Positions 27,801 to 56,412 of a stretch of 64,000 nt of DNA are shown in pieces. The position numbers and the translations under genes are program-made. The stretch comes from Strigamia acuminata. Lineage: Eukaryota; Arthropoda; Chilopoda; Geophilomorpha; Linotaeniidae. The notes beneath the pieces are model-generated. The model did not search any database. It was not told where the DNA came from and saw nothing but the letters and a program-made list of their open reading frames with translations. The stretch's first letter is position 1; every line of letters begins with the position of its first letter. The stretch covers positions 56,491,369 to 56,555,368 of the forward strand of contig OX442314.1 of NCBI GenBank assembly GCA_949358305.1, written 5' to 3'.

Positions 27801-28486
27801 CATCTACCGGATTTACACCAGCAATGATGACATACGGTAGAGAACTACGACCTTTTTGGGACAATCGAGACGTATCTTACGATGCTCCTTTTGACCCAGA
27901 GAGGCCATATGATGCAGTCAGAATGCTGATTGCAAGACATACAATTTTGCTTGCTGCAGCTCTTAAAAACAAGACTTTAGCACAAACAAAGCAAAAAGGC
28001 TATTATGACAAACATCGTAGCGATGATTTTTTTGAAGTTGATGATTTAGTTTTGCTAAAAACCCATCCTCAATCAAAAGCAGCCATTCGTTACGCTGCGT
28101 CACTCGAAGATCGTTTTGAGGGACCATACGTAGTAACAAAAGTACACAGTACAAACGTATATACTCTTGCAAAACCAATAACTTTGCAAACAAGAGGAAC
28201 ATACAACATTGTGAAACTCAGGAGATTTATCCCCTCAGAAGGAAACGCTACATGGCCTATTCCAGATGAAGGAGATATAGAAATCCCTGAAAACCAACCA
28301 AGGAATGCTGAATTGACAACAAAATTGCCAATTTCAACACAACCATTGAATATTTTGAACCAAAATGTGGTTTTGCCTCTGCCAAATGTAATTTCAAAAC
28401 AAACTACAAATATTTGGCCAAAACCACAACAAACTTCCGGTCGACCTCAAAGAATTCGACGAACACCGGCAAGATTACTCGATTAA
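24764..28486 (+). CDS. pol: Element A Pol (protease, RT, RNase H, integrase)
   Basis: About 1240 codons in the -1 frame relative to gag, numbered here from the frameshift. Aspartic protease with D86 in MDTGA. Reverse transcriptase with the YLDD catalytic box at 424-427 plus MPFGLCNAP and DLTKGYYQIKL. RNase H starting HTDAS at 571. Integrase with an HHCC zinc finger (last Cys pair C849/C852, CDRCQRC) and catalytic triad D882, D941 and E976 (D-58-D-34-E). The tail is basic and Pro/Thr-rich without a chromodomain. All catalytic residues are present and the frame is uninterrupted, so the element looks competent. Confidence 0.95.
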   Translation, partial: RGVAVGGDFRVIDDCALSTILMPSEEDMYDSLFDDKSSEEPNPCIVFSSKPETDQVNVALKTGKSISPMPYLNTTLNGIKATALMDTGATHKYISGGMLKKLDLFKYMTPFLGNRVVLTGDRPTRPMGTITIPFKWRGGEFQEKFTVLPSASKFILLGCSWIIKNRIILNLIEKEYFHIDFPAETFPFDDPPLAEDFGNAVIDQWEALIAESKESAVDTLTLEEQLLSKSHLSARQRFQITALVKKHKHVFSSKAGCHPTLEHPIPTGDAPAFRCKDRPMNPKKAELYRELVAELLRDGWAEPCEGSYKNPPVIVAKKDGGYRLCIDFRWLNKITIKDVYQMPSISMILACLGGKKFFSTLDLTKGYYQIKLKPSDKKKTAFSTSDGTYQFTRMPFGLCNAPSAFQRMMDKVLGTAQYKWALAYLDDIIIFSDSFEEHLQHLDDILSKLDESKLTASPSKSFLCPENLHFLGFTMNQGNYSPNGDKVEAIVKYPTPSSIKQLQRFIGMVGFYAALIPNLSITQKPFFALLKKDMKWKWTEECNNAFEILKKQLAEGIMLPLPDFSRNFTIHTDASGGGLGAVLMQIDDHGALRPVAYASRTLQKAENNYSATDLECLAVVWAVEKFRPYIEYSEYEVETDHRALKFLMTMENPTGRLARWAMKLQNENFTIKYRKGTDNQVADALSRVSLDNVNPLEETATLKEITETDALTFLSYEVDDSMSFENITLEQKKDKHLSVLMEWLELDEEQPRPVLPKFLEDRQYDCTLTRKGMLIIYAPFKSDLFAEESDLGTGFKIFVPPSLKLAALQLVHDHPMAGHGGIEATLERLKRIYFWPNMQKDVKIHVASCDRCQRCKPIQRKPKGLMIPTSPKIGRFEKVGIDLIGPLPRTQNRNRFILVVVDYATGWMEASPLRSAKMNALAPILKRFFSAHGCPRFMLSDNGPQFISDVYERLCEDAGVVPIKTTPYHPQTNLTERVNRNIKIMLRIFTFEHDQWDRCIEQINFALRSAPNSSTGFTPAMMTYGRELRPFWDNRDVSYDAPFDPERPYDAVRMLIARHTILLAAALKNKTLAQTKQKGYYDKHRSDDFFEVDDLVLLKTHPQSKAAIRYAASLEDRFEGPYVVTKVHSTNVYTLAKPITLQTRGTYNIVKLRRFIPSEGNATWPIPDEGDIEIPENQPRNAELTTKLPISTQPLNILNQNVVLPLPNVISKQTTNIWPKPQQTSGRPQRIRRTPARLLD

Positions 28487-28740
28487 ACACCAGGGGGACA
28501 CCCCTGAACTCAAGAAACCGATTTTGGACCAATCACAGATCGTCTAGAAAACGTCTGCGGTACTTTCCAAAATACGCCATTTACACGTGTACGAAATTCG
28601 TATATTTAACGAGCGCTGATTCGGTCTACAAATCATTCTGTTCACCAACAGCGACCGACCACCACAGTTCTCACATTCAAACGATTCTCGAAGGAATCCC
28701 GATATTCATTGTTTCCGAAATCGATAAGTTTTGTTGTAAA

Positions 28741-29967
28741 ATGGATCAACGATTGTTGTCGACACACACGACATGCACAGTATGCATGGGCGGAGGACTC
28801 ACGCACTACCCGAATTTGCAGGTAACAGCATGTATGAACTGCAACGGAAAAAAGATAGTTTATCTTTATCGACCGGTGGAGAATTTTTTTAAATTTTTCA
28901 TGCGGCCAGAACATTTGCTTCCCGATCACAAACGCGTCTTGACGTGGGGGAAAGTTCGAAGCGAAGCCGACAGGGAAAGGGACGCGAAAATCTACTTCAA
29001 GGGACTTTCCGCATCCTCTACCCCAACGCAACCGCCAAGAAAAAAGGCGAAGATGTCGAACAAAAATTCGTCATTTGAACCACAAACACTAGTAGAGGCC
29101 ACGAGCAACAACTCGACGGTCGATACAAACAAAACGGCGAAGCAATCGAGCAAAAACTCGACAGCCAAACCAATATTAAAAGGAAATGGTCCAAAGACTT
29201 CTTCCGCAACAACAAAACAAATGGGTATTTCCATGGAAACTAACATTTCCGCGGAGCTACTGGAGCTTCGGTTGGCTGTTCGTACGGAACACCCAACTTG
29301 GAGTGAGAAAGAAGTAAAGGACGAAGCCATGAAGCGTCGTCAATTACGAAAAGCGGCCGATTACCAACGGCACACAAACGCCATCGCCAATACCACGTCG
29401 AAGACACCGGCGGCGGCAACGATCACGAGCGAGACAGCCAAGACTGTTTCACCAAAAATAATGCGGACGGAGAAAACTCCGGAAGAACTGAAAGGGGTTT
29501 GGAGTCAAATATTGCCTGCCCCGCTCTCTTCTTTGTCGTTGACAGCTTCTACCAAAGCTGGAACCACCACAAACTCGTTCGTTTTTCCTACGGCGAACGC
29601 ACCGCTGCAACCAGCAAGCGAACTGTCCGCCGCCGCACCAGAAACATCGACAGCCGTCGTGATGCCACCAATATCCGGCGACATTCCGACAAATCTTGTT
29701 TTCGGCAGTGAGACCGAAGTCACGCCGATGATCATCGAGGATGCGGACACGACGGTCCAAACCCCAAAAGCCGAGGAAGATATCACGTCGAATCCGAGGC
29801 CGAAATCGAAATCAGCGGATAAGAATCGGGAAAAGAGAGCGCGCCGCCACCAGACGAAAACGCAACGAGGTCTGGCGGAGAAGATGTCGCCAATTCGCCA
29901 GGAGGAAATGGATCAACTCGACGAATTGCCAGTGACGCCCGGAAAGTCGTTGGAGCCGAAAGAGTGA
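28741..29967 (+). CDS. Element A ORF3: zinc-motif protein in env position
   Basis: 408 codons from ATG at 28741, 254 bp after the pol stop. The open frame continues upstream without an ATG. Residues C12, C15, C31 and C34 form CX2C-X15-CX2C, identical in spacing to element B. A conserved block follows (VENFFKFFMRP.., WGKVRSEADRERDAKI), then a long Ser/Thr/Lys-rich region that looks disordered, a helical basic block (LLELRLAVRTEHPTWSEKEVKDEAMKRR) and a TEKTPEEL motif. It has no signal peptide or membrane segment, so it is not a typical Env. The nucleic-acid-binding look (zinc motif plus basic tail) suggests an RNA/DNA-binding accessory protein, but the function is unknown. Probably made from a spliced subgenomic RNA. 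Confidence 0.8.
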   Translation: MDQRLLSTHTTCTVCMGGGLTHYPNLQVTACMNCNGKKIVYLYRPVENFFKFFMRPEHLLPDHKRVLTWGKVRSEADRERDAKIYFKGLSASSTPTQPPRKKAKMSNKNSSFEPQTLVEATSNNSTVDTNKTAKQSSKNSTAKPILKGNGPKTSSATTKQMGISMETNISAELLELRLAVRTEHPTWSEKEVKDEAMKRRQLRKAADYQRHTNAIANTTSKTPAAATITSETAKTVSPKIMRTEKTPEELKGVWSQILPAPLSSLSLTASTKAGTTTNSFVFPTANAPLQPASELSAAAPETSTAVVMPPISGDIPTNLVFGSETEVTPMIIEDADTTVQTPKAEEDITSNPRPKSKSADKNREKRARRHQTKTQRGLAEKMSPIRQEEMDQLDELPVTPGKSLEPKE

Positions 29968-32610: not shown

Positions 32611-32767
32611 ACCTGACTCTAGTGTTATGACCATGGTAGAAACTTTGGTTTCTTCTACAAATAGACCCATTACTCCTGACACAATATGCAACCATGTGTT
32701 ATGGGTCAGTCTTCAGGATGGGCGAAGGTAGATTTATACCGCCCCACCTGTTGTGGGAATTGCTAAC
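32611..32767. other. Short spacer before element C
   Basis: Degraded sequence, possibly the continuation of the Mag-like relic. It ends in TAAC (32764-32767), the left target duplication of element C. Confidence 0.5.
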
Positions 32768-33855
32768 TGTGGTGACCTCAAATATTCCTATTTGAGTGCG
32801 CACCATATTTCCAAATTGTCTTTTAAACATATTCAACAAGCCTATATGTTTTATTTCAATGTAAATTGAAATAAAACATACATTAATAAAATATAAAACA
32901 AGACACAATATTACCCAAATAATATTGTGTTTTGCAGCAAGTTTTGGCCCAGCAACAGCGTCAACCAATCGCGCTGCAGCGTGCATTGCTTTGATGATGC
33001 TGCTAGGCGTGTGCCTGGGCGGAGCATCCCTTCCCCTCGCGCGTGCCCGGCTCAATTGTTGCACACGACCCGAAGGCGGCCGTGTGTGATCTTTGTGCAA
33101 CTCGTCATCTGCGCAGCTTTTCTGAGCAGATTTAGAAGTGAGCCAAACGGTTTTGGCCCACTCTTCCCGCATTCTTGATCCTGCTTCCAAACCTTTCACA
33201 ACCGTGTCAAACTTATGCCCAAACTCGCTAAGTGTGATCTGTGATATTGGAAGAATCGAGATTCATTGCTGGTCTGTACCAACTGTACAGAATAGCGCCC
33301 TTCTGCTTGAATTACTACACGTAATTTAAGCCATTTCTGTGTGTGAATTGACATTGAGCTTGCTCTGTCAATTTGAAGGCTTTGTGTCGAGTTTAACTCC
33401 GCAAAGCGAACTGTGTTAAGACGGATTGTTACGTCGAGCTTGCTCCGTAATAATCAAACCGCTGTGTGCAAGACGTGTTCTCGTGTTGAGCTTGCTCCGC
33501 GAGGATTTTGGTATATTTTAGCAACGTATTTTAGCGTCGAGTTTACTCCGCTAAAATCCCGCGCTCACACAACGCCATCGACGCCATTTTGGAGCCAACG
33601 GTCAACTGTGAGTGTCCAAGTACAAAGAGAAGCCAGATCGACCCAGTCATTACATTACTATTATTATTTCCCCTTTGCATCTATCAAGTGTATTTAGAAC
33701 GATTAAAACAATCTAATTTTTCCTTTTACTCTTCGTGTAAAAATCATTCCCCTAGACAACCATTTAGCCACAGAGTAGAAGTCCTGTACGGCATCTCACC
33801 GACGATTGCTTGTTAAATTTACATAATTTAATAAGTAAAAACCCGGATTGCCGCA
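32768..33855 (+). repeat. 5' LTR of element C (1088 bp)
   Basis: Includes a self-complementary stretch at about 32848-32884 (TATGTTTTATTTCAATG with CATTG..ATAAAACATA), a GC-rich block, and the hairpin array at 33273-33557. Compared with the 3' copy I see three substitutions, two of them between the fourth hairpin and 33575 and one six bases from the end. Confidence 0.95.
33273..33557 (+). promoter_or_regulatory. Array of hairpins with conserved bulged tips in the C LTR
   Basis: Two simple hairpins (33273-33291 and 33306-33330) precede five bulged hairpins at 33346-33373, 33379-33407, 33424-33455, 33478-33505 and 33528-33557. Each of the five reads: lower stem, 5'-side bulge TT or TC, GAGC or GAGT, short T-rich loop, complementary GCTC or ACTC, lower stem. 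The lower stems (AATTGACA, GCTTTGTG, GATTGTTACG, TTCTCGTG, ATTTTAGCG) differ completely, yet each pairs with its own 3' arm over 8-10 bp, using G-U wobbles in three cases. The array is repeated in the 3' LTR (first bulged hairpin at 45112). An RNA element recognised by a protein is the natural reading; DNA dyads are the alternative. Confidence 0.85.
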
Positions 33856-33857
33856 CT

Positions 33858-33875
33858 TGGGGGCCTGGCCGGGAT
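33858..33875 (+). promoter_or_regulatory. Primer-binding site of element C, tRNA-Pro-like
   Basis: TGGGGGCCTGGCCGGGAT starts 2 nt after the LTR and matches 15 of 18 bases of the tRNA-Pro-type site. The mismatches sit in the middle. Confidence 0.6.
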
Positions 33876-33947
33876 AGTTTTGATTGTTAAAATCCGATTT
33901 TTGCGAAAAAATCCTTTATTTCCATTGTTCTTTTTCAATTTGACAAA

Positions 33948-36842
33948 ATGGCGACGCCAATGCAAATTGTAAAACGACAGCGAGGTCGACCAAGCACTCA
34001 GAAACGAGCAGCGACGGTTTTGCCGGCTCTCGAGCCTGAAATGCTTATGGAGAAAATTATTTCCGAGGAAATAACACCAGTTCCAGATCCGAAACAACTT
34101 AAGGATGCTGAAAATGAAGTTGCTAGAGCATTAAGCGCTTCAAGTGCGAGTTCTAACGACCAAGAACTCCCGCCACTTCCACTGGAGGAAGTGGAAAATA
34201 CGTTACGTGAAATGGAAAGTGAATCGTCTCACGAATCACCTCCTCGCATGACCATGCTGGATGCTTTGAGAAATCAAGCACGCCAGGATGGCGCCCAAAT
34301 AACAGACGACATGACGGTGGAAGAGATTCATCGCGCCATGATACGACTTCACACTGATCGTGCCGTTTCAAATTTACAATTTGAAATGGAACGAAAAGAA
34401 GCTGAGCTTCAACAACAAAAAACGGAGGTTGAGCTCCAACACATGGAACTCAATCGACAAAATGAGGAATTTCTAGCCCAAAAAGCTAGAGAATACAGAT
34501 TAAAAGGTGAAGTGGAAGATCTTTCTAAAATGAACGCTAGAAATGAGCTTTCAATTCGCTCACACCAAGAGGCGCGAAGACAGCTCGAGCTTACCAAAAG
34601 TAAACTGGAGCAGAAAAATAAAGAACTGATTGATTTGGCAGACCACTACCAACGCAATCATAATCAACTAGTGAGATATGCTGCTGAATTAGACACACGT
34701 GCTAAAACACAGCGTACTCGCGAAAGCAAAATAGCTAAGCGTGAAGATGAGATTTTCCACTCGCTGGATCAACCCAGTACGAGCGGACAAGTCAAGTCTA
34801 GCGACCCTGCTAAGCGATTACAACCAGAAGAATCGCAAAATCAAATAAATGAGAATGAAATTCTCCGAGCTGATTTGTTGCGCGCTCAAGAAGAGCTTGC
34901 AGAAATGAAAGATCGTTTGCAAGCAAGGAATTATACTGACCAATTGGTGCAACCAGAAATGGCTGCGCCAACTGTCCCTATTTTGACTCCCGAAACAATA
35001 ACAATTTCTGTTGTTTCAGAGTTAAGTAGCCAATCTGGATTATCGAGTGATGACGACCAACGTTCGCGTCGCCGCCATCGCTCAAAAAGAAAACGTCCTT
35101 CAGATTCCGAGGAAAGGAGAGCTGATCGCAATCCACTTCCTGGTAATCGAAATCCTATTTTTCACAACAGTGACCGACTGTTGGGGATGGTAGACGATCG
35201 AAATAGACGGCATGAAACTGGTATTCATGTTACTCGAACGATACCACTGGCTCAACAGCAAGACTCGTCAAAAAGAAGTCGACGAGACACGAATCCAGCA
35301 CGCGAACCACCCGACGGACATGAAAGCCCGCCAGGTGGGGGTCAGTATAGAAGAAATCCACCAGATGGAGGAAATCCAGATGGACACGGAGATGGACCAC
35401 CTGGAGGTGGACGTCGACCGCCAGACGATGACGGCGACCCACCCGACCCACCTGAGACACCACATTTTAACACGCCTTCAAATTCACAATCTGATTCAAG
35501 GTCGGATTCTGATGTGAATGCGCAACAAGAACGCGATAATCGACATCGATCTCATCGACGTCGACATCGAGGCCATTCTTCTCGGCGTAATACACATTAT
35601 TACACTGCTGAAGAAATTGATCGATTATTAGCTGATCGTCGATCTTCCGATCGATCTGACGCTACTGCCGATAATGCTGACATCGCATTACGACAGAAAA
35701 TTGCCCAATATACTGCAATCAACTGGACACACGATCTAGTTGACGAAAGAACTATTAGATGGGATCACATCAAACCCGCTTTATTCGATGGAGAATGGGA
35801 AGCTGGATCCACTCTTTTAGATGAAGTTTTACGAATTTCAAGGTTGAATGGCATTGCATGTCACACTGCTTTGAAAAGAGTAGTACCAAAAGCTCTTATA
35901 GACCGAGCTGAGAAATGGTTTTATTCAAAACAATTTCAAAATTGGAATCACTTTGTAGAAGAATTCATGACTGAGTATGGAGAGTCAAGTGAAGACTTAT
36001 TACAAATGTGGGATAATCTTTCTCAAAATAAAGGCGAAAGTCTTCGCTCTTATTTAAGAAGGACTGAGGATTTATTGGTCACTCTCCCTTATACGATGGG
36101 AGACGCAGCCATTGATCGTCAATTCCGTCGTGGATTGACAGATTATTCAAAGAATGTTCTACTTTCAGTACGAGCACCTTATCCGGGTGGTTTCGCTGAA
36201 TTAGCCAAATTTATGCGAGCCAATCAAATAAGGATTGACGAAAATTATAAAGCTTATCTACCAGCTGATGAAAAGGTTGCGTACGCTAAGCGACAGCAAC
36301 GGAGAAAGGAATTAGCTAAAGATACACGTTTTGCTAATACCCCTCTTTTGCAACCCCCAAAACGAGGAGATTTTTTGGCAGAGACTGCTAAGGAATCTAA
36401 AAAGGGATCGGATGGAAAAAATCCTCATCCAACCCCTAAAGCTCACTTAGCCGAAGTGACTGAAATGGAAACTGTTTCTGAACCAGAGAAATCTGACTCG
36501 GAACCAGAAAGCGAGGCTGCAGCTGCTTTATTAGCCCGTAATAACGCAGTAGCTCGAAAATTTGGACCAAAGATGGCACCTAAAAACGTTACTTTTGGTT
36601 CACCAAAGACAGACGCGCTCAGTAGATCGAAGTCGCCGACCCCTAAAAAGGACGAAGCCAAACGTTCAAGTTCGCCTTCGCCAAAAGTCGCAAAATCGCC
36701 TGCTACTGACCCGTGCAATATTTGTAAGAAATTGGGACATTGGGCTAAAGAATGTCCTGACAGAAAATCGAGCAAAGACAAGATTATAGAAGAGTTCGAG
36801 AAATCGATGAAATCAATCGGCGAACTTCTAAAAAACTTGTAA
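33948..36842 (+). CDS. gag: Element C Gag polyprotein (964 codons)
   Basis: Starts at ATG 33948, only 92 bp after the LTR. Unusually long for Ty3/gypsy Gag. The N-terminal 350 residues are acidic and then strongly coiled-coil (Glu/Gln/Arg heptads, about 125-270). A basic, RS-like stretch follows (about 370-400), then a Gly/Pro/Asp-rich segment (about 445-510) and a second Arg/His/Ser-rich block (about 530-560). The capsid domain (about 590-770) has IRWDHIKPALFDG, AEKWFYSKQFQNW, FVEEFMTEYG and SLRSYLRRTEDLL. A single canonical zinc knuckle lies near the end: C923, C926, H931 and C936 (CX2CX4HX4C). The stop is two codons after the frameshift heptamer. Confidence 0.95.
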   Translation: MATPMQIVKRQRGRPSTQKRAATVLPALEPEMLMEKIISEEITPVPDPKQLKDAENEVARALSASSASSNDQELPPLPLEEVENTLREMESESSHESPPRMTMLDALRNQARQDGAQITDDMTVEEIHRAMIRLHTDRAVSNLQFEMERKEAELQQQKTEVELQHMELNRQNEEFLAQKAREYRLKGEVEDLSKMNARNELSIRSHQEARRQLELTKSKLEQKNKELIDLADHYQRNHNQLVRYAAELDTRAKTQRTRESKIAKREDEIFHSLDQPSTSGQVKSSDPAKRLQPEESQNQINENEILRADLLRAQEELAEMKDRLQARNYTDQLVQPEMAAPTVPILTPETITISVVSELSSQSGLSSDDDQRSRRRHRSKRKRPSDSEERRADRNPLPGNRNPIFHNSDRLLGMVDDRNRRHETGIHVTRTIPLAQQQDSSKRSRRDTNPAREPPDGHESPPGGGQYRRNPPDGGNPDGHGDGPPGGGRRPPDDDGDPPDPPETPHFNTPSNSQSDSRSDSDVNAQQERDNRHRSHRRRHRGHSSRRNTHYYTAEEIDRLLADRRSSDRSDATADNADIALRQKIAQYTAINWTHDLVDERTIRWDHIKPALFDGEWEAGSTLLDEVLRISRLNGIACHTALKRVVPKALIDRAEKWFYSKQFQNWNHFVEEFMTEYGESSEDLLQMWDNLSQNKGESLRSYLRRTEDLLVTLPYTMGDAAIDRQFRRGLTDYSKNVLLSVRAPYPGGFAELAKFMRANQIRIDENYKAYLPADEKVAYAKRQQRRKELAKDTRFANTPLLQPPKRGDFLAETAKESKKGSDGKNPHPTPKAHLAEVTEMETVSEPEKSDSEPESEAAAALLARNNAVARKFGPKMAPKNVTFGSPKTDALSRSKSPTPKKDEAKRSSSPSPKVAKSPATDPCNICKKLGHWAKECPDRKSSKDKIIEEFEKSMKSIGELLKNL

Positions 36843-36877
36843 GCGCGCATCCAGACGGTCTAGTGGATGCGACGCCT
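36830..36877 (+). promoter_or_regulatory. -1 ribosomal frameshift signal of element C
   Basis: A AAA AAC (36830-36836) lies in the gag frame as X XXY YYZ, two codons before the gag stop. After a 6-nt spacer, GCG-CGCATCCA (36843-36853) pairs with TGGATGCG-a-CGC, an 11-bp stem with one bulged A and a 10-nt loop. Pol has no ATG near its start and is open in the -1 frame from before the heptamer. Confidence 0.85.
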
Positions 36878-39800
36878 ACCGCCTCGGAAAACGAACTAAC
36901 ACCATCTCAAATTTTAGATGAATTTTTAAATAAACAGATTAAATTAGAATTAGAAAATAATTTAATATTTCCAAAAATTGATATTTCCAGTTTAAGGCTT
37001 GTGCTAAAAAATGAAAACATCACTGAGGAATTTTTTAAAGAAAAAGTTCAACAAATAAAAGTTGATTGGGAATCTAAAATAAAAGATGCTGTTACTTTAC
37101 TAGATGGAAAAGCTAGGCCCACACCTGAAATCACTGAAGGATCAGATAAAATTGATTTACCTGGTCTTGATGAATGTATTGAAAAATTACTGGCTACAAC
37201 ATTAGTCACTAATGATTTATTGGACGAATTACCATTGGATCCGCCGATAGAAATTAAGCCACCGCGACGTTTTAAGTGCAAGTACGCGGACATACCAAAC
37301 AGCAATGATTTGCCGACGATTCGATTGCAGACGGCAAACGGTATGATAACAGGGATGTTAGACTCTGGAGCTAATCGAAGCTTCATGGCCTACTCCGTAG
37401 TAATTTCGCTGAAACTGGAAGATGAAATTCGACCAATTGGACCGGATGTGAGAGTTACGACTGCTTCAGAAGATGTAGTCCCTGAAGGAACTCTCCTACT
37501 TTCTTTTGCGTGGACACACGGGATGTTAAGTCATCCATTCATAATTTTAAGAAATAAATATCCTATTGTTTTATTAGGATGTGATTTTATGAATCGACTC
37601 AACATACAACCAAATCCTAAGACAATGTCTTGGAATTTTGTCAAGTCTTTGAAAGAAGATTTACCTTTTGTTCCTCAAGCGATTCTTGATCGTTATCAAG
37701 AGTTCCTTGATCCACCCGAAGAAATCATGAAACGCGACTTTATTAAAGCAAATCACATGAAAGCTGGTTCCGCCACTGCATGTCAAGCTAAAGTTGCCGA
37801 TGAAGAAAATATAGTACAAAGACTTGTTAGCGACGCTAATTTGTCAATGGAAAATAATGTAATGCTTGAAAGAGTATTAAAGAAACATGAAAAGATTTTA
37901 TCTCGCCGACCAGGTAGAACACACCTTGTTAGGCATGAAATTAAACTGGACACTAAGGTTCCAATTAGAGTTCCGTTTAAAAGCGTAAATCCACAGAAAC
38001 GTGAAATTATCCGTCAAATCTGTCAAGATATGTTGGATAATGGGTACGTTGAACAAGCCACTGGGGACTATGGGATGCGAATAGTTCTAGTGATGCGTCC
38101 GGATTGTGATCCGAGACTCTGCATTGATTTTAGACCACTCAATGCACATACATTATACGATCCTCCTCAAATGCCGAGCATTGAGGAAATCTTGCGAGAA
38201 CTCGGAAGATTTGAATGGGTCACAACGATAGATTTGTCAAAAGGCTATTGGCAGATAGAGGTTCATCCGAACGACCGTGCTAAAACTGCGTTTTGGAGCC
38301 CTTTGGGTCGACTACAATTTCGAGTCATGCCCTTTGGTCTCGTAAATGCGCCGTCAACTTTCCAAAAGTTGATAGAAAAGATTTTGGGGGACGCCTATCG
38401 AAAATTCGCATGGGCATACCTCGATGATATAATTATAATATCAAAAAATTTTGAAGAACACATGATGCATCTGGAAGAAATTCTGAGTAAACTTGAAAAT
38501 GCAAATCTTCATGTTCATCCAGAAAAATCAAAATTTGGCAGAAAAGAATTAACTTTTCTTGGTTACAAGTTAAGTGTTCAAGGAGTTAGTGTCGACCCTA
38601 AAAAAGTCGCCGCCATTAAAGAAATGCCAGCTCCTTCAAATTTGAAAGAGTTGCAAAGAATTTTGGGAATGGTGAACTTTTTTCACCGATTACTCAAGAA
38701 TCTGGCAGTCATGACGGAACCTCTACGTCCTTTGCTCAAAAAGGATGTGGAATTTATTTGGTCAGAAATTCATCAAGAAGCTTTTGATCAAATAAAAGAT
38801 GCTTTGACGAATGCAGAAACAATGGCCATGCCTGATTTGACAGAACCATTTATTGTGCATACCGACGCCAGCAGAAAAGGACTTGGCGCCGCGCTTATGC
38901 AAATGAGGGAAATCGATGATCAAAATATCGAAGTGCCTTGTGTTTATGCCAGCAGAAGTTTGCAACCTGCTGAGATAAATTACAGCGCCACAGAATTGGA
39001 GTGCCTAGCGGTAATCTGGGCATTACGTAAATTTCGACATTACTTGGAATTTACAACATTCATAGTAAGGACTGACCATCAAGCACTAAAATGGTTGATG
39101 CAGTTAGACGAACCTGCCGGAAGGTTAGCACGTTGGCAAATGGAGCTAATGCGCTACTCTTTCGAAATACAATATATTAAAGGTCCACTAAATGTTTTAG
39201 CGGATGCTTTATCCAGATCACCGATTGATAAACCGGAAAATCCTGAAGATGATGGAGATAATGATGAATTATTATCTTACTGTCCATCACCACAACGAAA
39301 TTGGAAAATGGGAAAATTTCATGAGCTTCCTGTCTCCACGCTGGAGGAAAAGGAAGATCACGAATTCGTCAACTATTGGACTAAAATCTATGACCCCTCT
39401 GAGGAATCAGATGACGTCATAAGAGCGCAAATTTCAAGGAAATTCCAAGTTCCTTCGTCAAATGTTTTAATAAAAGCATTTGTCGCCAAAATTGTAGAGC
39501 GTCTTGATTGTGAACCCCCCACAAGGGAAGACATAATCAAGGCCCAAAAAGAAGATAAAGTTTGCCAATTAATGCGTAATTTTTTAAATTGTAATCAATT
39601 TCCGCCTGACGTCACAACGCGACTCCAGAGGAAACAATATAGAAAACACGCAACCACCTTCTTAATTGAAGATGACTTATTAATGCAATTTCATCCCACA
39701 ATGTCTGATGAATTGGGGGAGGATGGGAGAGCACTCAAAGTTTTTGTACCTCAGACATTGAAGTATAAAATTATTTGGCTAATGCATGGCCACCCACTTT

Positions 39801-41311
39801 CTGGCCACCCAGGAATTGCAAGGACTCTTTATCGAGCACGCCGAATTTATACCTGGAAAGGCATGAAATCGGACATTACGAGATTCATTCGACATTGTGA
39901 GCGTTGCCAAGCTTGCAAGCCTCGAACGAAAGGACAAATTGAAGCAGCGCAAATGGGTCCTTACAGCCCATTTGACTGCCTAAGTGTTGATTTGACCGGC
40001 CCGAAACCTCGGACGCGCAAAAACAACACACATATTTTAGTCATACTTGACGTGGCAACTCATTGGCCAGAATTATATCCAATGTGTAACCCCACTGCTG
40101 GAAAAGTAGCAAATTGCATTTATCACCTTTCCATGAGCATGGGATTCCCTCGTAAAATTATTTCTGACAACGGCCCGCAATTTCGTGCCCAAGTCTTTAA
40201 AAAATTTTGTGAAAAGTTCAAGATGGTTCCAACACCAACTTCAACATATCACCCACAAGCTAACCCGGTTGAAAGGGTTAACCGTGACATCAAATATTTG
40301 GTTGCAATTTATTCATCTATTCATTCCAAATGGGACGAATATTTGCGTGAATTTGCATTTAGCTTGAGAACTACAGTGACGAGAGGAAGAGACTTCTCTC
40401 CCGCATTTCTTAACTTTTTTCGCGAACTCAGAGTACCTTGGGATCCAAGAATACCTGAAGGAATTTTGGTCGTAGATCCAAAAAACCCACATTTATACGT
40501 GCAAAAATTAGAAGCCGTTATCGCCGAAACATATCAGCACATGATGTCACACGTGTTAGATTTGCGTAGACGAGTAAATCTTAAAAAAGAAGGTGAGAAG
40601 TTCTCCAATTTTAAATTAAACGATTTAGTTTGGAGAGATTCTCATGTTTTGTCGAGCGCTGCCCGCGGCATTGCAGCTGGCATCGCTGATAAAAGAACAG
40701 GACCTTATGTAATAACCAAAGTATTACAGGGAGGATCCGTAGAATTGAGAAAGCTAGAAAATAACGAAATATTTCCAGCTGTCCATTCGTCTGAATTAAC
40801 TCCGTATTTCCCGAGTTTCGACCAGGAAGTATGGCTAGAAGGTGAAGAAGTCGGTCAAAAAACTGAAAATATAATTAATACGTTAGATGACGATGAATTA
40901 AAGAAAATACCTGTCGATAATTCATCCAAACCACAAATGGAGTCAGACCTCGTGAATAACGACGTTGAACTTCGTGACAGTTTCAAAAAGCTTGAAATTG
41001 CTAAAAAATTAAATAAAAAGGTGTTTTTAGAAAAGAAACAAAAAACATCTGAAATAAAAGACTCATCTGACTCAGTCTCCGATGACAATGAAGACGGCGA
41101 TTTAAATACAATAAATCCCTCGCCGACAAAGAGATATAATCTTCGGACTCGTAAACCGAGAGGAAAAAACAACATGTGTCTTCTCCCCTCGATAACCTCG
41201 AGATCCAGGGATCAGCCTTATGACGTCAGGAGCAATTCCTCGAGCCCTAAGGTAACCAATCAACCAATGAGATTGGATGACGTCGCTAACAGCGACGTTA
41301 CCCAAACGTAA
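36836..41311 (+). CDS. pol: Element C Pol (protease, RT, RNase H, integrase)
   Basis: About 1491 codons counted from the frameshift. A 150-residue acidic/helical lead precedes the protease, whose catalytic site is LDSGA (D176). RT has YLDD at 528-531 with MPFGLVNAP and DLSKGYWQIEV. RNase H starts HTDAS at 675. Integrase has an HHCC finger (CERCQAC, C1021/C1024) and triad D1052, D1111 and E1146 (D-58-D-34-E, same spacing as A/B). A roughly 170-residue tail after the integrase is Lys/Glu/Ser-rich. It belongs to a different lineage from A/B, as shown by the DSGA protease and different motif wording. Fully open. Confidence 0.95.
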   Translation, partial: LVSAHPDGLVDATPTASENELTPSQILDEFLNKQIKLELENNLIFPKIDISSLRLVLKNENITEEFFKEKVQQIKVDWESKIKDAVTLLDGKARPTPEITEGSDKIDLPGLDECIEKLLATTLVTNDLLDELPLDPPIEIKPPRRFKCKYADIPNSNDLPTIRLQTANGMITGMLDSGANRSFMAYSVVISLKLEDEIRPIGPDVRVTTASEDVVPEGTLLLSFAWTHGMLSHPFIILRNKYPIVLLGCDFMNRLNIQPNPKTMSWNFVKSLKEDLPFVPQAILDRYQEFLDPPEEIMKRDFIKANHMKAGSATACQAKVADEENIVQRLVSDANLSMENNVMLERVLKKHEKILSRRPGRTHLVRHEIKLDTKVPIRVPFKSVNPQKREIIRQICQDMLDNGYVEQATGDYGMRIVLVMRPDCDPRLCIDFRPLNAHTLYDPPQMPSIEEILRELGRFEWVTTIDLSKGYWQIEVHPNDRAKTAFWSPLGRLQFRVMPFGLVNAPSTFQKLIEKILGDAYRKFAWAYLDDIIIISKNFEEHMMHLEEILSKLENANLHVHPEKSKFGRKELTFLGYKLSVQGVSVDPKKVAAIKEMPAPSNLKELQRILGMVNFFHRLLKNLAVMTEPLRPLLKKDVEFIWSEIHQEAFDQIKDALTNAETMAMPDLTEPFIVHTDASRKGLGAALMQMREIDDQNIEVPCVYASRSLQPAEINYSATELECLAVIWALRKFRHYLEFTTFIVRTDHQALKWLMQLDEPAGRLARWQMELMRYSFEIQYIKGPLNVLADALSRSPIDKPENPEDDGDNDELLSYCPSPQRNWKMGKFHELPVSTLEEKEDHEFVNYWTKIYDPSEESDDVIRAQISRKFQVPSSNVLIKAFVAKIVERLDCEPPTREDIIKAQKEDKVCQLMRNFLNCNQFPPDVTTRLQRKQYRKHATTFLIEDDLLMQFHPTMSDELGEDGRALKVFVPQTLKYKIIWLMHGHPLSGHPGIARTLYRARRIYTWKGMKSDITRFIRHCERCQACKPRTKGQIEAAQMGPYSPFDCLSVDLTGPKPRTRKNNTHILVILDVATHWPELYPMCNPTAGKVANCIYHLSMSMGFPRKIISDNGPQFRAQVFKKFCEKFKMVPTPTSTYHPQANPVERVNRDIKYLVAIYSSIHSKWDEYLREFAFSLRTTVTRGRDFSPAFLNFFRELRVPWDPRIPEGILVVDPKNPHLYVQKLEAVIAETYQHMMSHVLDLRRRVNLKKEGEKFSNFKLNDLVWRDSHVLSSAARGIAAGIADKRTGPYVITKVLQGGSVELRKLENNEIFPAVHSSELTPYFPSFDQEVWLEGEEVGQKTENIINTLDDDELKKIPVDNSSKPQMESDLVNNDVELRDSFKKLEIAKKLNKKVFLEKKQKTSEIKDSSDSVSDDNEDGDLNTINPSPTKRYNLRTRKPRGKNNMCLLPSITSRSRDQPYDVRSNSSSPKVTNQPMRLDDVANSDVTQT

Positions 41312-41520: not shown

Positions 41521-44357
41521 ATGGAAGGAGAGGAACCGAAAGAAGGAAGCGAAGCCGGCGCCAACAGCCTCGAATTAGAGACAAATTCGACGCTGCTTGG
41601 TTCCGCAAACACTTCGAATACGTCCGTGGATGTCACCGAAGAGTCCGCCGAAGCGTCCGCCGAAGCTCAAGCCGCTCTGGCCGACGCTGCTACCCGTTTG
41701 CCAGTCGCGCCGCCCCGACCACAACTTCGAGGAGGCCTATTCGCCGATCCAAACGGCGAAACTCGTGCACAGAGACACGACCGGGTAAATAAATTAAAAT
41801 AAAATTACCTTTCAGTCATGAAAAGTAATTAAAAGTGCATTTTCACTCGGAAAAAGCGAAAAGTTCGTTGGTAACGCCTTCGCAAGAAGGCGCCGCCATT
41901 TTTATCATCAGATGGCGCTGTGTCTCATTTTTGAGGCGTTGCTATGGTAACGCTCCAAACACTGAAACATAGCCGTCAGAAACAACGTTTTTCACGATTT
42001 TTCAAACATTTTGAAAAATTTAACGAATCTAAACTGTCGAATGAAATCTCACCCGTGATTTTATTCACTGAAAATTCGGAAATAATTATTTTACACGAAA
42101 AAATAGATTTTAATTATTTCTTCGAATATTTTTACAGATCATCCAGCTTCGGGAAACGCATCTCGAACTGCACCCCGATGTTCCAACAGCTCCTGGTGTC
42201 TGGCGACATGCATTGCCGCCAGAAATCATAAAGTCTAAAGGAAGACTGACGTTTTGGGCGGCCCGACACAAATTCTCCAAGGCCTTAAACAAGCGATGGG
42301 GAACGAAGTTTCGGATCGCCTATTTAATCGATGGATTCGGTCATCGCGACGCCCTCGAGTGGGCAATGAAGCGCGACACCTTCGGACCACTGCGAAACGT
42401 GTTGCTCGACTTCGCCTTCACAGTGATCAATCAAGAAACGCGAGACCATCGCCGTTACTTCAACGCTCCTGCGTGGGAGCGTCGACAGATTTTGGAGGAC
42501 ATTTTCCAACGCTTGGACCAAACCAAGGCCGAGGTTGTACGCCTCTACCACGAATCCTTCCGTGTGACTACAGACGGAAAGAAACGTTGGGTGCCGACAT
42601 GCCAGTCGGAAATGCATCAGCTAGCCATGGGCGGATGTTTCCATGCTGATTTCGTGCCAAACCCGTATCCAGAGCCTGAGCCCCGGGTACAGGTCGCTTC
42701 CACCATCCACGTGGTGCCGCCGCGCTCCACGTCGAGGTCACGATCATCGAGGTCGCCCTACAGTGGCCGTCGCTCCTCCCCAACACAGTCGTCGGGGGAA
42801 GGCGCCATTGGAGAGTTACCTCCACTCCAGAAGGCTCGTCATCGCTCGCATCACCGACGCGAGTCGACGCCGCCAAAAAGACATTCGAAGTCCGTGTCGA
42901 GACCCACATCCCGAAGCCGACCTCGAGTGCAATCGCGCCAATCTTCCACGAGGAGTTCTCTCTCATCGCGTGAAGAAAGGTCCAACGCTTCACAGCCTAG
43001 CGCTTCCTCCTCCGGCCGAATTGACTGGTCGGACGAGATAGCGAAAGAAGATCGACGCATCGCCGCATTGCAAGCCGGTCAAGGAGACGTCAACACCTCT
43101 TTGCCGTTCGCTTGCCGTCCAGTCACCAGCGACATGCGACCAGACCCATCGGTGCCCGTGCCACAAGTGACATCGGTCATCCGTTTTGAGGGATACGTCT
43201 CTCAAGAACCATTTCCCGCACAGGAGTGCGCTGATCTCTGGAGGCGATTCTCATCGTTTCCCGAGACAGCCCAAACGATGTACCTCGCGCATCTGGACGA
43301 ATACCAACTCGCTCAGATCCGCGAAGGTGAGAAAGAGTGGCAGTGGCTTGCGCGAGAGCTTGCGTCGTGCAAGTCCGACAAGCAACTGCAACGGACGCTG
43401 CAGAAAATGAACAGGAAATTGTCGGAGGGACTGCTTCGAATCCTATTCCAAGGAGTCTTTCCCGACCCACAGATTGCTCTGGCGGCCGCCACTCGATTGT
43501 GGACCGTGCCGTTAGGGCTTCCACGAGCCTTGCTGGACGATTGGGAGTCAGTTCGCCCCGATCCTCCAACGATGCTCGCCGAATTGACGCAACAAGCCGA
43601 GGCGACTGGCGAAACTCCGGCTGGATCCGCCATTCGACTACGGCAGGAATGGGCTGCGCTGAAGCAGCGACGCGCAGCAGAACGAGCTACCGCCCGTCCC
43701 GCTGGCGCACCACCGTCATCCGCAGCTCCACTCCACGCTGCCATCACGGCAACGTCGAGTGTTTCCCGTGCAACCGAGGCACCGAGTTGCAACATCTCGT
43801 CTCCGATGGAATGGCTCGACAGCGACGATCGCGAGTTCGTCGTGCCTGTGGCCTGCGGTGCCAGACCAAAGACGCGCACCCCGGCTTTGCGCAGATCCAG
43901 ATCCCTCTCGATCTGCAAAAAGTCGCCGCCACCGCCGCCTCCTCCAAAGGATTCGCCGCCAAGAGATAGGGGATCGAGTATGGCCACCCACCTCACCGCC
44001 TATCAACGTTTGCGCTCATTATACGCTTTTTGCTACATAACGAGCGCGACGAAAACGATTCTCCAGAACAGCGAGGATTTATGCAACCGAGTCCTCGCGT
44101 GGCTGGAAAACCACATCAAGGAACAGCAGCCGTGGATCCTGCATCAACGCCTGGTGTTCGCTCGAATTACGCCTCAAGACCCGCAGGAGTACTTCGAGAT
44201 GGGTTTTGGACGAAGGGATGGTGTGGACCGCATAAAGCAAGTGTGGCTCCACATCAACCCTGGCTTCCGGTCAGGACCAAACGCCGGCCGACCTTTGTGC
44301 ACCGTCACAGAGCACAAAGATCCAAACGATCACTCAACGGACATGTTGCCTAAATAA
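41521..44357 (+). CDS. Element C ORF3: spliced RS-domain protein in env position
   Basis: Exon 1 is 41521-41784 (ATG to CGG, donor GTAAAT). The intron is 41785-42137 (353 bp, acceptor TTTTTACAG). Exon 2 is 42138-44357. The junction is phase 0 and both sides are open, giving 827 codons; without splicing the frame stops at 41802. Exon 1 is Glu/Ala/Ser-rich. Exon 2 starts with a globular block (KGRLTFWAARHKF, GTKFRIAYLIDGF), then an Arg/Ser-rich domain (about residues 255-350, with many RS/SR dipeptides), a second helical block (ADLWRRFSSFPE, WQWLARELASCK, LQKMNRKL), a Pro run and a C-terminal globular block (LCNRVLAWLENHI). No signal peptide or membrane anchor. RS domains act in splicing and RNA export in cellular SR proteins; a role on the element's own RNA is an inference. 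Much GC-richer than gag-pol. Confidence 0.75.
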
Positions 44358-44533: not shown

Positions 44534-45552
44534 TGTGGTGACCTCAAATATTCCTATTTGAGTGCGCACCATATTTCCAAATTGTCTTTTAAACATATTC
44601 AACAAGCCTATATGTTTTATTTCAATGTAAATTGAAATAAAACATACATTAATAAAATATAAAACAAGACACAATATTACCCAAATAATATTGTGTTTTG
44701 CAGCAAGTTTTGGCCCAGCAACAGCGTCAACCAATCGCGCTGCAGCGTGCATTGCTTTGATGATGCTGCTAGGCGTGTGCCTGGGCGGAGCATCCCTTCC
44801 CCTCGCGCGTGCCCGGCTCAATTGTTGCACACGACCCGAAGGCGGCCGTGTGTGATCTTTGTGCAACTCGTCATCTGCGCAGCTTTTCTGAGCAGATTTA
44901 GAAGTGAGCCAAACGGTTTTGGCCCACTCTTCCCGCATTCTTGATCCTGCTTCCAAACCTTTCACAACCGTGTCAAACTTATGCCCAAACTCGCTAAGTG
45001 TGATCTGTGATATTGGAAGAATCGAGATTCATTGCTGGTCTGTACCAACTGTACAGAATAGCGCCCTTCTGCTTGAATTACTACACGTAATTTAAGCCAT
45101 TTCTGTGTGTGAATTGACATTGAGCTTGCTCTGTCAATTTGAAGGCTTTGTGTCGAGTTTAACTCCGCAAAGCGAACTGTGTTAAGACGGATTGTTACGT
45201 CGAGCTTGCTCCGTAATAATCAAACCGCTGTCTGCAAGACGTGTTCTCGTGTTGAGCTTGCTCCGCGAGGATTTTGGTATATTTTAGCAACGTATTTTAG
45301 CGTCGAGTTTACTCCGCTAAAATCCCGCGCTCACACGACGCCATCGACGCCATTTTGGAGCCAACGGTCAACTGTGAGTGTCCAAGTACAAAGAGAAGCC
45401 AGATCGACCCAGTCATTACATTACTATTATTATTTCCCCTTTGCATCTATCAAGTGTATTTAGAACGATTAAAACAATCTAATTTTTCCTTTTACTCTTC
45501 GTGTAAAAATCATTCCCCTAGACAACCATTTAGCCACAGAGTAGAAGTCCTG
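44534..45552 (+). repeat. 3' LTR of element C, left part
   Basis: 1019 bp matching 32768-33786 with two substitutions. Contains the second copy of the hairpin array (bulged hairpins from 45112 to 45323). Ends at CCTG (45549-45552), the target site of element B. The remaining 69 bp resume at 56344. Confidence 0.95.
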
Positions 45553-46175
45553 TGTGACCAGCTGCCCCTGCGCACGGGTCGCTGCACTGCAACGGCAATG
45601 CACTTGGCGCAGCTCCAGCGCCTCTCGTATCTCGCGCAGCCTGTTGCGGTCCCCCGCAACCAGGTGGAGCTGCGGGCCTTTGGTCAAGCAGGATCGGGCC
45701 CCGGAAGTCGCCCTTCCGGAAGTGGTTGGTCCCCGTAGGGACAAGAGAGTTGTTGATCAACCAGCAAGGCGAACGGTCGTGTTGCGACCGCCTCCGAAAC
45801 TGGCTATTGAGATAACCCAAACTATCGGCGTGGCGATGATATCGCCCGCCGGGACCTGAGCGTCCAGTTGCGCCACGTCCGCCGGACGTTAACCGTAACT
45901 TCGGCGGCGTGGCCCAAAACCGATTACCGACCTCGTGTGTCATGGCGGCCGATGGCCGCCGTGCCACGCGGTCTGATTAGGGACGGTTCGAAGGAACCGC
46001 CGCCTTGGGAAATACACTATGGGACACTACAATCATACCCCTAGACATCCAATAAAGCCATAACTAAAACTATATTGTGTCTCCGTGTATTTCGTGGTTT
46101 GTTTTATCGTGTGTGTTGCGTCCAGCGCCTCCGTGGCTCTCCCCCGACCACGTGGCGTCCGTCCGAACACTCACA
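45553..46175 (+). repeat. 5' LTR of element B (623 bp)
   Basis: TGTGACCAGC to ACACTCACA. It retains the A-type hairpins with altered stems: CATGGCGGCC/GGCCGCCGTG at 45941-45963 and CGGTTC/GAACCG at 45984-45999. AATAAA at about 46051. Identical to 55717-56339 in my reading. Confidence 0.95.
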
Positions 46176-46177
46176 AT

Positions 46178-46195
46178 TGTGGGCCCGTCCAGGAT
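46178..46195 (+). promoter_or_regulatory. Primer-binding site of element B, tRNA-Pro-like
   Basis: TGTGGGCCCGTCCAGGAT, 15 of 18 matching the tRNA-Pro-type site, again 2 nt after the LTR. Confidence 0.65.
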
Positions 46196-48395
46196 TTTGA
46201 ATTCTCTTGCGAATACTATTCTAATTTACTGATTGTGTGAAGCACAATATTAAATGAATTTTTTCTTTCAACTAGAGGGGGAAATTTCCTTGGTCATGAT
46301 TGTGATAGGGGGTCAGCAGGCGAAACGGCCGCTAATCGCTGACCATTGGACCCTGATCAGACAAAAATTGGTGGCTTTGCATGTCCAGCTTGCCTGGGTA
46401 CTGGCAAGCCGGGACTTACACTAGCCACACTTTCCAACGGTCTTCTATTCCTTTCTAGCTTAGCCTAAAAAACTGAGTGGTTGGGAGGGGAATATAATTC
46501 CAAACCTTCTTTATTATTTCTATTTCTTGGTGCGCAGCCCAAGTAAAAGTAATGGAACAGTCTGCAGCGTATTCAAACTCGATTCGTGGAGGAGGCGCGC
46601 TGGTGGCCACCAGCAAACCAAATCCCACGGGGGAGAAGCGGTCATATTCCAGGTGCCACGCTGCAATCACTGGTTCCATTATGGGCCGGGCGAGGAGGCG
46701 ATGTTGAACTGAGCTTTGAGTGACATCAAATTTCTTGTAGGACGTTTAGTCGCTTGGATGCAGGTTGCTAGCTTAGTGGTCGCTGGCGCGGGAACAGTCA
46801 CGTGCGGTGAGTTGGCGTGTAGTTGGACCCGAGTGGCAGCGAAGTGTCCGCACACATGGGAAGACTGCCTTGTTTTTTGTTGCGACTCATAATTTATGGG
46901 TTGCGTTGTGGCTGCTCAAGGCGCTCATCCGGGTTCACATCGGTCATAATCCTACCCTGTCCCGTGTACTGGTTGGTAGGCAACTGCAAGTTAACGTATT
47001 TAACCCAAGAGTTGCTGAAATTGGGACACGGACAGCAGGGAGAGCTGCCGGAGGTACGGGGATACCGATGGTGAAGTGCTCAAATGGCACAGAGAGTTCG
47101 TTAGGGCGTAGGAACGATATCTGTGCGTTCAGGTAGCTACCAACTTTGAAAAAAGATTGGGAATCTAGCCTGTAACTTTTGTTTCTGAATTTTATTCACT
47201 CTTGCTTGATTTCTGGGCTACTGCAGTTTGTTAAAGGACTGTGCTCAAACCACAGTCTGGAGCAATCTCTGTAATTTGGAAATTAGTTGTTTTTACATCT
47301 TTTTCATTTTTTACTTTTTCTCTAAACTTCCCTATCTATGATTTTCATGGTTTTCTTGGGACTCCACACCTGACAGCGGTAATAATCACCTCAAATGCCG
47401 GGTTGTATACAGCGTCAAATGGAGGGCGATATGGCTTCACAATGGCGGCTGAAGGGTGGGACCCAAGGCGACTAGGGACAGAAGATGCATTTCCTTCTTA
47501 CTTTAAGTGCAACTGACTGTTCCACAAAAAACACCATTTCATTGGGATGAACAGACATCTCAGTGTAGGCACGTTTCTGTCGAAAGGCAGCCTCGTGCAG
47601 ACTGGAATGAGTCTCCGAAAGGGGTGAGCGGGCGCGTTTGTTGGTCTCTTGGGGCAGAAGAAGAGATTGCAACAATATCCCCGTAGTGTAAATATCTGCG
47701 AAAAACCTTCTGCTAAAAATTGGAACTTTTTGAGTGTCTTTTAGATTAAAAAACACCCAGTATTTTGTAATTTTTTATTTTTTATTTTCTTATCTTTCTT
47801 CCTCTGTTTCTTCTTGCGAGGCATCAAGAATCGGTTTGTCTGCGCGCTAGCGCGGTTTGATTTTGTTATTTGTTGCCAACAATGATAAAATTAACTGGTT
47901 TGAAAATTTCGAAGTTCTACAGACATGATTTCGTGCTTTTTTAGAAAAGCACAAAAGTCATGTTTTTGTGGAATCAGACCATTTTGATCTGGTTCAGAAC
48001 TTCTAGTTCCAAACAAATTTCTATTTGCTTTCAAAAAATGTTGTTTCTCTTCAGAAATGGAGAAAATTCGGCATTTATATTGGTCAAAGTTTTATTTTTT
48101 GTCAAAAAATCAAGATGGCGACCTGAAAACAATAGAAAAACATGTGGAAATCTCGGAATTTTCGAGAATGATTGGAATTTTAAATTTTGACATTTTCTTG
48201 GAACTCTGGGAAATCAATTCCATGAATTAATTTAATTTTTCTACCAATGGGAAACCAGGGGGGGGAAGTGACATCACTAATCCCTCTCCCAAGAATGGCT
48301 ACTTGAGCCTAATCTCCTGTCTCCTCATTGGTCGTGACTTAATTCCACTTGTTCACCTTGCAAGCTGCGGTCCTGCTTTTGGTCACATTGTGTCA
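46196..48395 (+). other. Element B leader, 2.2 kb, non-coding
   Basis: Homologous to the A leader along most of its length, with many substitutions. The nested hairpin is conserved nearly exactly: GGTCAGC 46311-46317, GCTGACC 46338-46344, apical palindrome CGGCCG 46326-46331. ORFs in this leader differ from those in A, so none is supported. Confidence 0.6.
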
Positions 48396-49997: not shown

Positions 49998-50009
49998 CTG
50001 ACGACTGCG
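49958..50009 (+). promoter_or_regulatory. -1 ribosomal frameshift signal of element B
   Basis: G GGA AAC (49958-49964) in the gag frame, a 7-nt spacer, then CGCAGTCG (49972-49979) pairing with CGACTGCG (50002-50009). The heptamer, spacer and both arms are identical to A, while the loop sequence differs. Confidence 0.85.
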
Positions 50010-53731: not shown

Positions 53732-53952
53732 CCGCTAGGTGACACTTCAAATCGGGAGACCCATTTGGACCAATCACAGACTGTTTACAAAACATCTGCG
53801 GTCCATACGCCAATTAAACGTTCGCGAAACGTCTTCCGGTTCTATACTTAGCCACCACCATTCGTTGTCCAAATCACTTATTCGCTGCGATCGCCACTGA
53901 CCAGTCGTGTGGAACTTCTCTGGAAAATCGAAACGAAAAGATTGGAAAAACG

Positions 53953-56339: not shown

Positions 56340-56343
56340 CCTG

Positions 56344-56412
56344 TACGGCATCTCACCGACGATTGCTTGTTAAATTTACATAATTTAATAAGTAAAAACC
56401 CGGATCGCCGCA
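56344..56412 (+). repeat. 3' LTR of element C, right part
   Basis: The last 69 bp of the C LTR resume after B. One substitution relative to 33787-33855 (CGGATCGCC for CGGATTGCC). Followed by TAAC, the right target duplication of C. Confidence 0.95.

What the first reader, a model, noticed from the sequence alone, without database searches (positions are those of the whole stretch)
33273..33557. Five consecutive bulged hairpins with invariant tips and covarying stems in the LTR of element C
Seen directly: five hairpins in about 210 nt share the apex TY-GAGY-TT-RCTC, including a 2-nt bulge (TT or TC) always on the 5' side, while the 8-10 bp lower stems are unrelated in sequence and still pair. 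Three of the stems use G-U wobbles, as expected for RNA. Both LTR copies carry the array. Two ordinary hairpins precede it. Repeated bulged hairpins suggest a multivalent protein-binding RNA, comparable in principle to TAR/RRE-type elements, or a structured 5' UTR. I know of no LTR retrotransposon described with such an array. A candidate partner is the element's own RS-rich ORF3 or its Arg-rich Gag.
Basis: partly seen in the sequence, partly recalled or inferred. Interest (0 to 1): 0.88.

Follow-up and report, generated by a model that had tools for sequence, protein, structure and literature searches.

The report
Bulged RNA hairpin array in retrotransposon LTR
A jumping gene carries a row of five (in some copies seven) small RNA hairpins whose stems are kept paired by matching mutations while one bulge base and the bases above it hardly change, looking much like the docking site that HIV uses for its Tat protein, which suggests a multi-site docking platform.

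Summary
The LTR of Ty3/gypsy element C carries five hairpins in 214 nt (33344-33557), each with a 2-nt 5' bulge under G-C, A-U, G-C, Y-R. Across 73 distinct hairpins from 66 arrays of the same genome, 617 of 639 lower-stem cells pair (39-48% when slid), with Watson-Crick double changes at 8 of 61 pair positions. G-U outnumbers A-C 67 to 7, marking sense RNA as the folded molecule. In 29 distinct arrays found without using the motif, the first bulge base is T in 145 of 145 hairpins and the A-U pair is kept in 145 of 145, while the second bulge base is T 90, C 55. Two of 56 distinct LTRs have seven hairpins, from a two-hairpin duplication that diverged with pairing kept. The fixed bases are those contacted in the published arginine forks of HIV-1 TAR. 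The best ligand candidate is an arginine-rich stretch of the element's own Gag (residues 372-383), not ORF3. The transcript ends are unresolved, so whether the array sits in the 5' leader, the 3' UTR or both is open. RNA-level function is well supported; arginine-rich recognition is inference; the step served (packaging or export) is a guess.

The parts
32768..33855 (+). 5' LTR of element C (TG...CA, 1088 nt); target-site duplicate TAAC at 32764-32767 and 56413-56416
   Evidence: 3 differences from the 3' LTR
33273..33331 (+). two ordinary hairpins before the array (33273-33291 and 33305-33331)
   Evidence: fold
33344..33375 (+). array hairpin 1, bulge TT at 33354-33355
33379..33407 (+). array hairpin 2, bulge TC at 33387-33388, one-base longer loop
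33424..33455 (+). array hairpin 3, bulge TC at 33434-33435
33477..33506 (+). array hairpin 4, bulge TT at 33486-33487
33528..33557 (+). array hairpin 5, bulge TC at 33537-33538
32892..32898 (+). TATAAAA, present in 54 of 56 distinct full LTRs; would place a start near 32920 (inference)
32870..32890 (+). two AATAAA (32870, 32885); at least one in this part of 51 of 56 LTRs; if used as poly(A) signal the RNA would end before the array
33702..33707 (+). ATTAAA, candidate poly(A) signal downstream of the array, in 53 of 54 aligned LTRs
33743..33758 (+). ATCATTCCCCTAGACA, in 56 of 56 LTRs; a near-identical motif is in the LTRs of elements A and D; candidate initiator/R region
33858..33875 (+). candidate primer binding site just after the LTR
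   Evidence: sequence; tRNA partner not tested
33948..36842 (+). Gag ORF, 964 aa (Retrotrans_gag, CCHC knuckle)
35061..35096 (+). Gag residues 372-383, arginine-rich stretch (9 of 12 R/K), candidate ligand of the array
36863..41311 (+). Pol ORF (RT, RNase H, integrase)
42213..44357 (+). ORF3, RS-rich, no Pfam match
45110..45323 (+). second copy of the array in the 3' LTR (LTR 44534-45552, interrupted by element D, resumed 56340-56412)

Best explanation
The array is a cis-acting RNA element of a Ty3/gypsy LTR retrotransposon. The sense transcript folds into a row of five to seven hairpins, each presenting the same bulge: a fixed U plus a free second base below a G-C, A-U, G-C, Y-R stub. Shown: the stems are held by selection on pairing in the sense RNA, and the bulge U with the G-A-G/C-U-C stub is held by sequence. 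Inferred: this is an arginine-sandwich/arginine-fork site (U over the A-U pair as cap, Gs read by arginines) repeated for avidity, and its ligand is an arginine-rich stretch of the element's own Gag (residues 372-383), so the array serves to pick or retain the element's RNA, most likely for packaging into particles, possibly also for export. Overall chain, including the Gag step: 0.4. RNA-structure step alone: about 0.95. Arginine-rich recognition: about 0.55.
For: Pairing: 617 of 639 cells against 39-48% slid; above all 1000 within-class shuffles for paired cells (617 vs 603 +/- 2.6) and covariation (156 vs 54 +/- 16). Tree counts on 54 LTRs: 23 WC-to-GU, 10 GU-to-WC, 9 double WC-to-WC at three pair positions, 3 WC-to-unpaired; lower-stem changes 52 of 52 transitions against 41 of 84 in linkers. 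Sense strand: G-U 67 vs A-C 7 cells; array folds at -64.0 on + and -49.2 on -. Apex: bulge base 1 had 0 events at 5 sites, base 2 had 18; motif-blind subset T 145/145, A-U 145/145. The loop-closing pair covaries, C-G 42, T-A 30, C-A 1. Two-hairpin duplication with compensated divergence. TAR/7SK contacts: PMC6189040 passages and section 9. Gag residues 372-383 identical in 9 of 9 copies.
Against: No binding was tested. The Gag copies compared are 96-99% identical, so an unchanged 12-aa stretch says little. The base triple cannot be shown by sequence. TAR's hexaloop, engaged by the CycT1:Tat:AFF4 complex, is absent. Packaging signals of retroviruses lie in the 5' UTR (PMC5454406 passage), and the array may be only in the 3' UTR. 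A-U kept in 73 of 73 is partly built in by the pattern used; the motif-blind 145 of 145 is the fair number. Eight of the nine double events are at hairpin 1, where the variant is the diverged duplicate, so they may be one or two events; arrays are related copies of one genome. By distinct pair, G-U against A-C is 10 to 3, one-sided p 0.046. Hairpin 5 alone is slightly stabler on the - strand (-10.4 vs -9.7). Sliding-window z over the array is modest.
Confidence: 0.4

Rival explanations
1. The array is bound by a host RNA-binding protein and governs RNA fate (nuclear export, stability or localization of the element's RNA), as viral response elements or hairpin localization signals do.
For: If the ATTAAA at 33702 (53 of 54 LTRs) is the poly(A) signal, the array is in the 3' UTR of every transcript. 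[quoted passage not shown] I factor retrotransposon RNA carries a bulged stem-loop bound by Egl-BicD (PMC13186709 passages).
Against: Egl signals need 3'-strand bulges to bend the helix; here the bulge is on the 5' strand, so Egl itself is unlikely. No host protein with the right specificity was identified. The AATAAA at 32870/32885 could end the RNA before the array.
Confidence: 0.25
2. TAR-like control of transcription: nascent hairpins recruit an elongation factor, or mimic 7SK RNA to capture P-TEFb/HEXIM.
For: Bulge and stub match TAR and 7SK pseudo-ASM3 in the bases involved. TATAAAA at 32892 in 54 of 56 LTRs could start the RNA upstream of the array.
Against: The array would begin some 420 nt after that start; the loop part of TAR is absent; the motif shared with elements A and D at 33743 suggests a start downstream of the array. 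The search for host 7SK did not complete.
Confidence: 0.08
3. DNA-level array: repeated binding sites for a DNA-binding protein (as the Su(Hw) site cluster of the Drosophila gypsy 5' UTR, recalled) or cruciforms.
For: Five near-identical 12-14 bp motifs in one LTR; possible U3 position.
Against: Lower stems of unrelated sequence stay paired and change in a compensated way; G-U exceeds A-C 67 to 7, which DNA pairing does not explain.
Confidence: 0.06
4. Mutational artefact: palindromes kept by template switching at quasi-palindromes during reverse transcription or repair, without selection.
For: Could produce compensated doubles.
Against: Templating should remove wobbles, but WC-to-GU is the commonest change (23 of 45 events), and the unpaired first bulge base stays fixed while its neighbour changes (0 against 18 events).
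Confidence: 0.03
5. Real, selected RNA structure with another role: shield against silencing or nucleases, translation control, or dimer formation through the tips.
For: The structure is selected.
Against: The two-base tip offers little for kissing and varies; no reason for a fixed bulge U.
Confidence: 0.18

Closest known systems
HIV-1 TAR RNA with the Tat arginine-rich domain
   Same: 5' bulge whose first U sits below G-C, A-U, G-C; in TAR U23 caps via A27-U38 and arginines 52 and 49 read G26 and G28 (PMC6189040 section 9). The same bases are fixed here.
   Different: Two-base bulge, two-base tip closed by a Y-R pair instead of a hexaloop, five to seven copies, retrotransposon LTR, position relative to the start unknown, no Tat.
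7SK RNA stem-loop 1 (arginine sandwich motifs; HEXIM)
   Same: The U40U41 bulge has U40 on A43-U66; several such motifs in one RNA (PMC6189040 passages; PMC10083321 passages).
   Different: There stacked within one helix, here one per separate hairpin. No Rfam match.
HTLV-1 RxRE / HIV RRE type export elements
   Same: LTR or genomic RNA structure read by a viral export protein; RxRE in the 3' LTR of all transcripts (PMC7551171 passages).
   Different: Array of like units; no Rev/Rex-like protein identified.
Egl-BicD localization signals, including the I factor ILS
   Same: Bulged hairpins, one of them in a retrotransposon RNA; number of elements matters (PMC13186709 abstract and passages).
   Different: Egl signals need 3'-strand bulges; here the bulge is on the 5' strand only.
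Packaging regions of Ty1/Ty3 and retroviruses
   Same: Structured terminal RNA with several hairpins; Ty packaging sequences not precisely defined, Ty3 RNA structure uncharacterized (PMC4974528 passages; PMC5454406 passages).
   Different: Retroviral packaging elements are in the 5' UTR; no array of like bulged units in the passages seen.

Membership tests
Arginine sandwich motif (TAR/7SK type) | Bulge pyrimidine placed to form a triple with a base pair above | tested here: met
   First bulge base U in 145 of 145 (motif-blind) and 72 of 73; A-U two pairs up. Position only; the triple itself not shown.
Arginine sandwich motif (TAR/7SK type) | Watson-Crick pair directly before the bulge as base of the sandwich | tested here: met
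   G-C 45, A-U 20 of 73; G-U 5, unpaired 3
Arginine sandwich motif (TAR/7SK type) | Triple forms and an arginine intercalates | not testable with these tools
   needs NMR or crystal structure
TAR element | At the 5' end of the nascent RNA, close to the start | tested here: inconclusive
   two start models; neither puts the array at +1
TAR element | Apical hexaloop engaged by the CycT1:Tat:AFF4 complex | tested here: not met
   four-base loop (five in hairpin 2), tip TT, GT or CT
Egl-BicD localization signal | Bulge on the 3' strand that bends the helix | tested here: not met
   5' bulge only in the window's five hairpins
Known Rfam family | Match above gathering score | tested here: not met
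   0 matches in the whole window; best E 3.4 over 32768-33947
Ty3/gypsy LTR retrotransposon (the element carrying it) | LTRs with TG/CA ends, short target duplication, gag, RT-RNase H-integrase order | tested here: met
Rev/Rex response element | An element-encoded export protein binds it | not testable with these tools
   basic stretches of Gag and ORF3 noted only

The most novel reading that the evidence does not exclude
A Ty3/gypsy retrotransposon has independently evolved TAR-type arginine-sandwich sites and strung five to seven of them into a valency-tunable RNA platform that its own arginine-rich Gag reads to single out its RNA; arrays grow and shrink by unit duplication while the units keep their bulge.
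Probability: 0.3. Interest if true: 0.9.

Novelty: new variant of a known kind. Interest (0 to 1): 0.76.

Why it matters
How LTR retrotransposons choose their own RNA is poorly defined; a review states that Ty packaging sequences have not been precisely defined and that the structure of Ty3 RNA is uncharacterized (PMC4974528 passages). Here is a compact, covariation-supported RNA with a clear binding hypothesis and a natural copy-number series (5 and 7 hairpins), testable with short RNAs and a peptide. If the ligand is arginine-rich, it is a case of convergence on the TAR/7SK recognition rule outside lentiviruses.

Tried and rejected
Rejected: DNA-only binding array and cruciform (G-U bias, compensated stems). 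Rejected: Egl signal (bulge on the other strand). Rejected: any Rfam family. My first idea that the array lies in a long 5' leader (TATA model, note) was weakened when the CCCCTAGACA motif was found in all three LTR families; a later note that the array is in the 3' UTR of every transcript was too strong, since AATAAA also stands before the array. Structure prediction of ORF3 and identification of the host were not attempted.

Rows dropped before counts: 6 partial of 105 loci, and duplicates (99 full, 56 distinct); the two 7-hairpin LTRs (54 used); one false row of 74. Hairpins of the ten diverged arrays too far from the seven class references were not counted; 3 of 10 arrays showed four instead of five. 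The four LTRs with four strict apices have five with a relaxed apex.

Full report
Setting. The window lies in a 237.5-Mb genome of an unnamed organism (host not identified). Element C is a Ty3/gypsy LTR retrotransposon: LTR 32768-33855 with TG...CA ends and a TAAC duplication, Gag (964 aa, Retrotrans_gag and CCHC knuckle), Pol (RT, RNase H, integrase) and an RS-rich ORF3 with no Pfam match. The two LTRs differ at 3 positions, so the insertion is young. Its 3' LTR is split by element D.

The observation. Five hairpins stand at 33344-33557. Each has a lower stem of 8-10 bp, a two-base 5' bulge (TT or TC), then GAG/CTC, a Y-R pair and a two-base tip (hairpin 2 has one more loop base). The region folds at -89.9 kcal/mol, better than 200 of 200 shuffles, though in 150-nt windows z is only -0.5 to -3.0. 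The apex pattern is confined to the two LTRs in the window and to the + strand. In the genome, adjacent pairs of the apex occur 235 times, reversed control 0.

Homologues. Similarity search gave 40 scored arrays at 94-100% (270 candidates, so a lower bound). With pattern hits, 105 loci were read; 99 hold a full LTR, 56 of them distinct. By strict pattern 50 of 56 have five apices, 4 have four (five when relaxed), 2 have seven. The seven-hairpin LTRs carry a duplicate of hairpins 1 and 2; the duplicates differ by compensated changes. A pattern chosen to exclude most of the common types found 54 further places (control 0), including diverged arrays; ten were read.

Selection on pairing. On a tree built outside the array from 54 LTRs, stem events were 23 WC to GU, 10 GU to WC, 9 double WC to WC at three pair positions, and 3 WC to unpaired. 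Eight of the nine doubles are at hairpin 1, where the variant is the diverged duplicate, so they may stand for one or two events. All 52 lower-stem changes are transitions against 41 of 84 in the linkers (Fisher p 5e-12). With 73 distinct hairpins, classes kept apart, 617 of 639 lower-stem cells pair; slid controls give 39-48%; 8 of 61 positions show WC-to-WC double changes. Paired cells (617 vs 603 +/- 2.6) and covariation (156 vs 54 +/- 16) exceed all of 1000 shuffles. G-U cells are 67, A-C cells 7, which marks the sense RNA as the folded molecule. Event counts are not independent; by distinct pair the G-U against A-C count is 10 to 3, one-sided p 0.046.

Selection on the apex. In 54 LTRs the first bulge base changed 0 times at 5 sites, the second 18 times, all transitions; upper stem 2 events at 30 sites, loop 10 at 21, linkers 84 at 61. 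Some loci were found by a pattern that asks for T, so the fair set is the 29 distinct arrays found by similarity: T 145 of 145, second base T 90 / C 55, A-U 145 of 145, no unpaired cell among 1762 (gapped cells set aside). In diverged copies the second base can be A or G; the first is C once. The tip varies (TT, GT, CT), so the tip is not the fixed part; the bulge U and the stub are. A genome-wide count of apices without the bulge U was asked for many times and never answered (onwards).

What it looks like. In the solved Tat-TAR complex the bulge U23 caps on A27-U38, A22 is the base, arginine 52 reads G26 and arginine 49 reads G28; 7SK has the same layout at its UU bulge (PMC6189040: passages, section 9). 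The fixed bases here, U-N-G-A-G with C-U-C opposite, are that set. This is a match of determinants, not proof of the triple. TAR's hexaloop is missing, so P-TEFb recruitment is not implied.

Candidate ligand. Gag residues 372-383 hold 9 R/K of 12 and are identical in 9 of 9 copies; a second basic stretch at 532-547 varies in four of the nine; the densest ORF3 window has 5 of 12. Since the Gag copies are 96-99% identical, this is weak evidence.

Where in the RNA. TATAAAA at 32892 is in 54 of 56 LTRs and would start the RNA near 32920. But LTRs of elements A, C and D share ATCATWCCCCTAGACA some 105-140 nt before the LTR end, in A and D followed by AATAAA, which fits an initiator and R region and would start C near 33744. 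After the array the only AATAAA/ATTAAA hexamer of the window's LTR is ATTAAA at 33702, kept in 53 of 54 LTRs; if it is the poly(A) signal the array is in the 3' UTR, and with the TATA start also in the 5' leader. AATAAA also stands before the array (51 of 56 LTRs); if that one is used the array is in the 5' leader only. None of these was settled.

Judgement. That the array is a selected sense-RNA structure is close to settled for this family. That it is read by an arginine-rich protein is the best reading of which bases are fixed. The literature listings seen showed no such array in an LTR retrotransposon.

Noticed in passing
window 45553-56339: Element D (LTRs 45553-46175 and 55717-56339, 100% identical) is inserted into the 3' LTR of element C with a CCTG duplication; a recent nested insertion.
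   Followed up: partly
window 20702, 30834, 33749, 45515, 46038, 56202: The motif ATCATWCCCCTAGACA is shared by the LTRs of elements A, C and D; in A and D it sits in the loop of a 7-bp hairpin that also holds AATAAA; looks like a shared initiator plus poly(A) hairpin.
   Followed up: partly
window 32843-32934: Two long AT-rich hairpins at the LTR start, with the strongest folding z-scores of the LTR (about -7.4), largely conserved in the aligned copies.
   Followed up: no
window 16049-18507 (-): THAP domain ORF beside a TNP-like RNase H transposase ORF: a P-element-like DNA transposon.
   Followed up: no
window 28414-29967, 42213-44357, 53953-55218: All three LTR elements carry a third ORF without any Pfam match.
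   Followed up: no
window 33948-36842: Gag is unusually long (964 aa) with an RS/Arg-rich middle before the Retrotrans_gag domain, and is better conserved between copies (96-99% protein identity) than many LTRs (down to 91%).
   Followed up: partly
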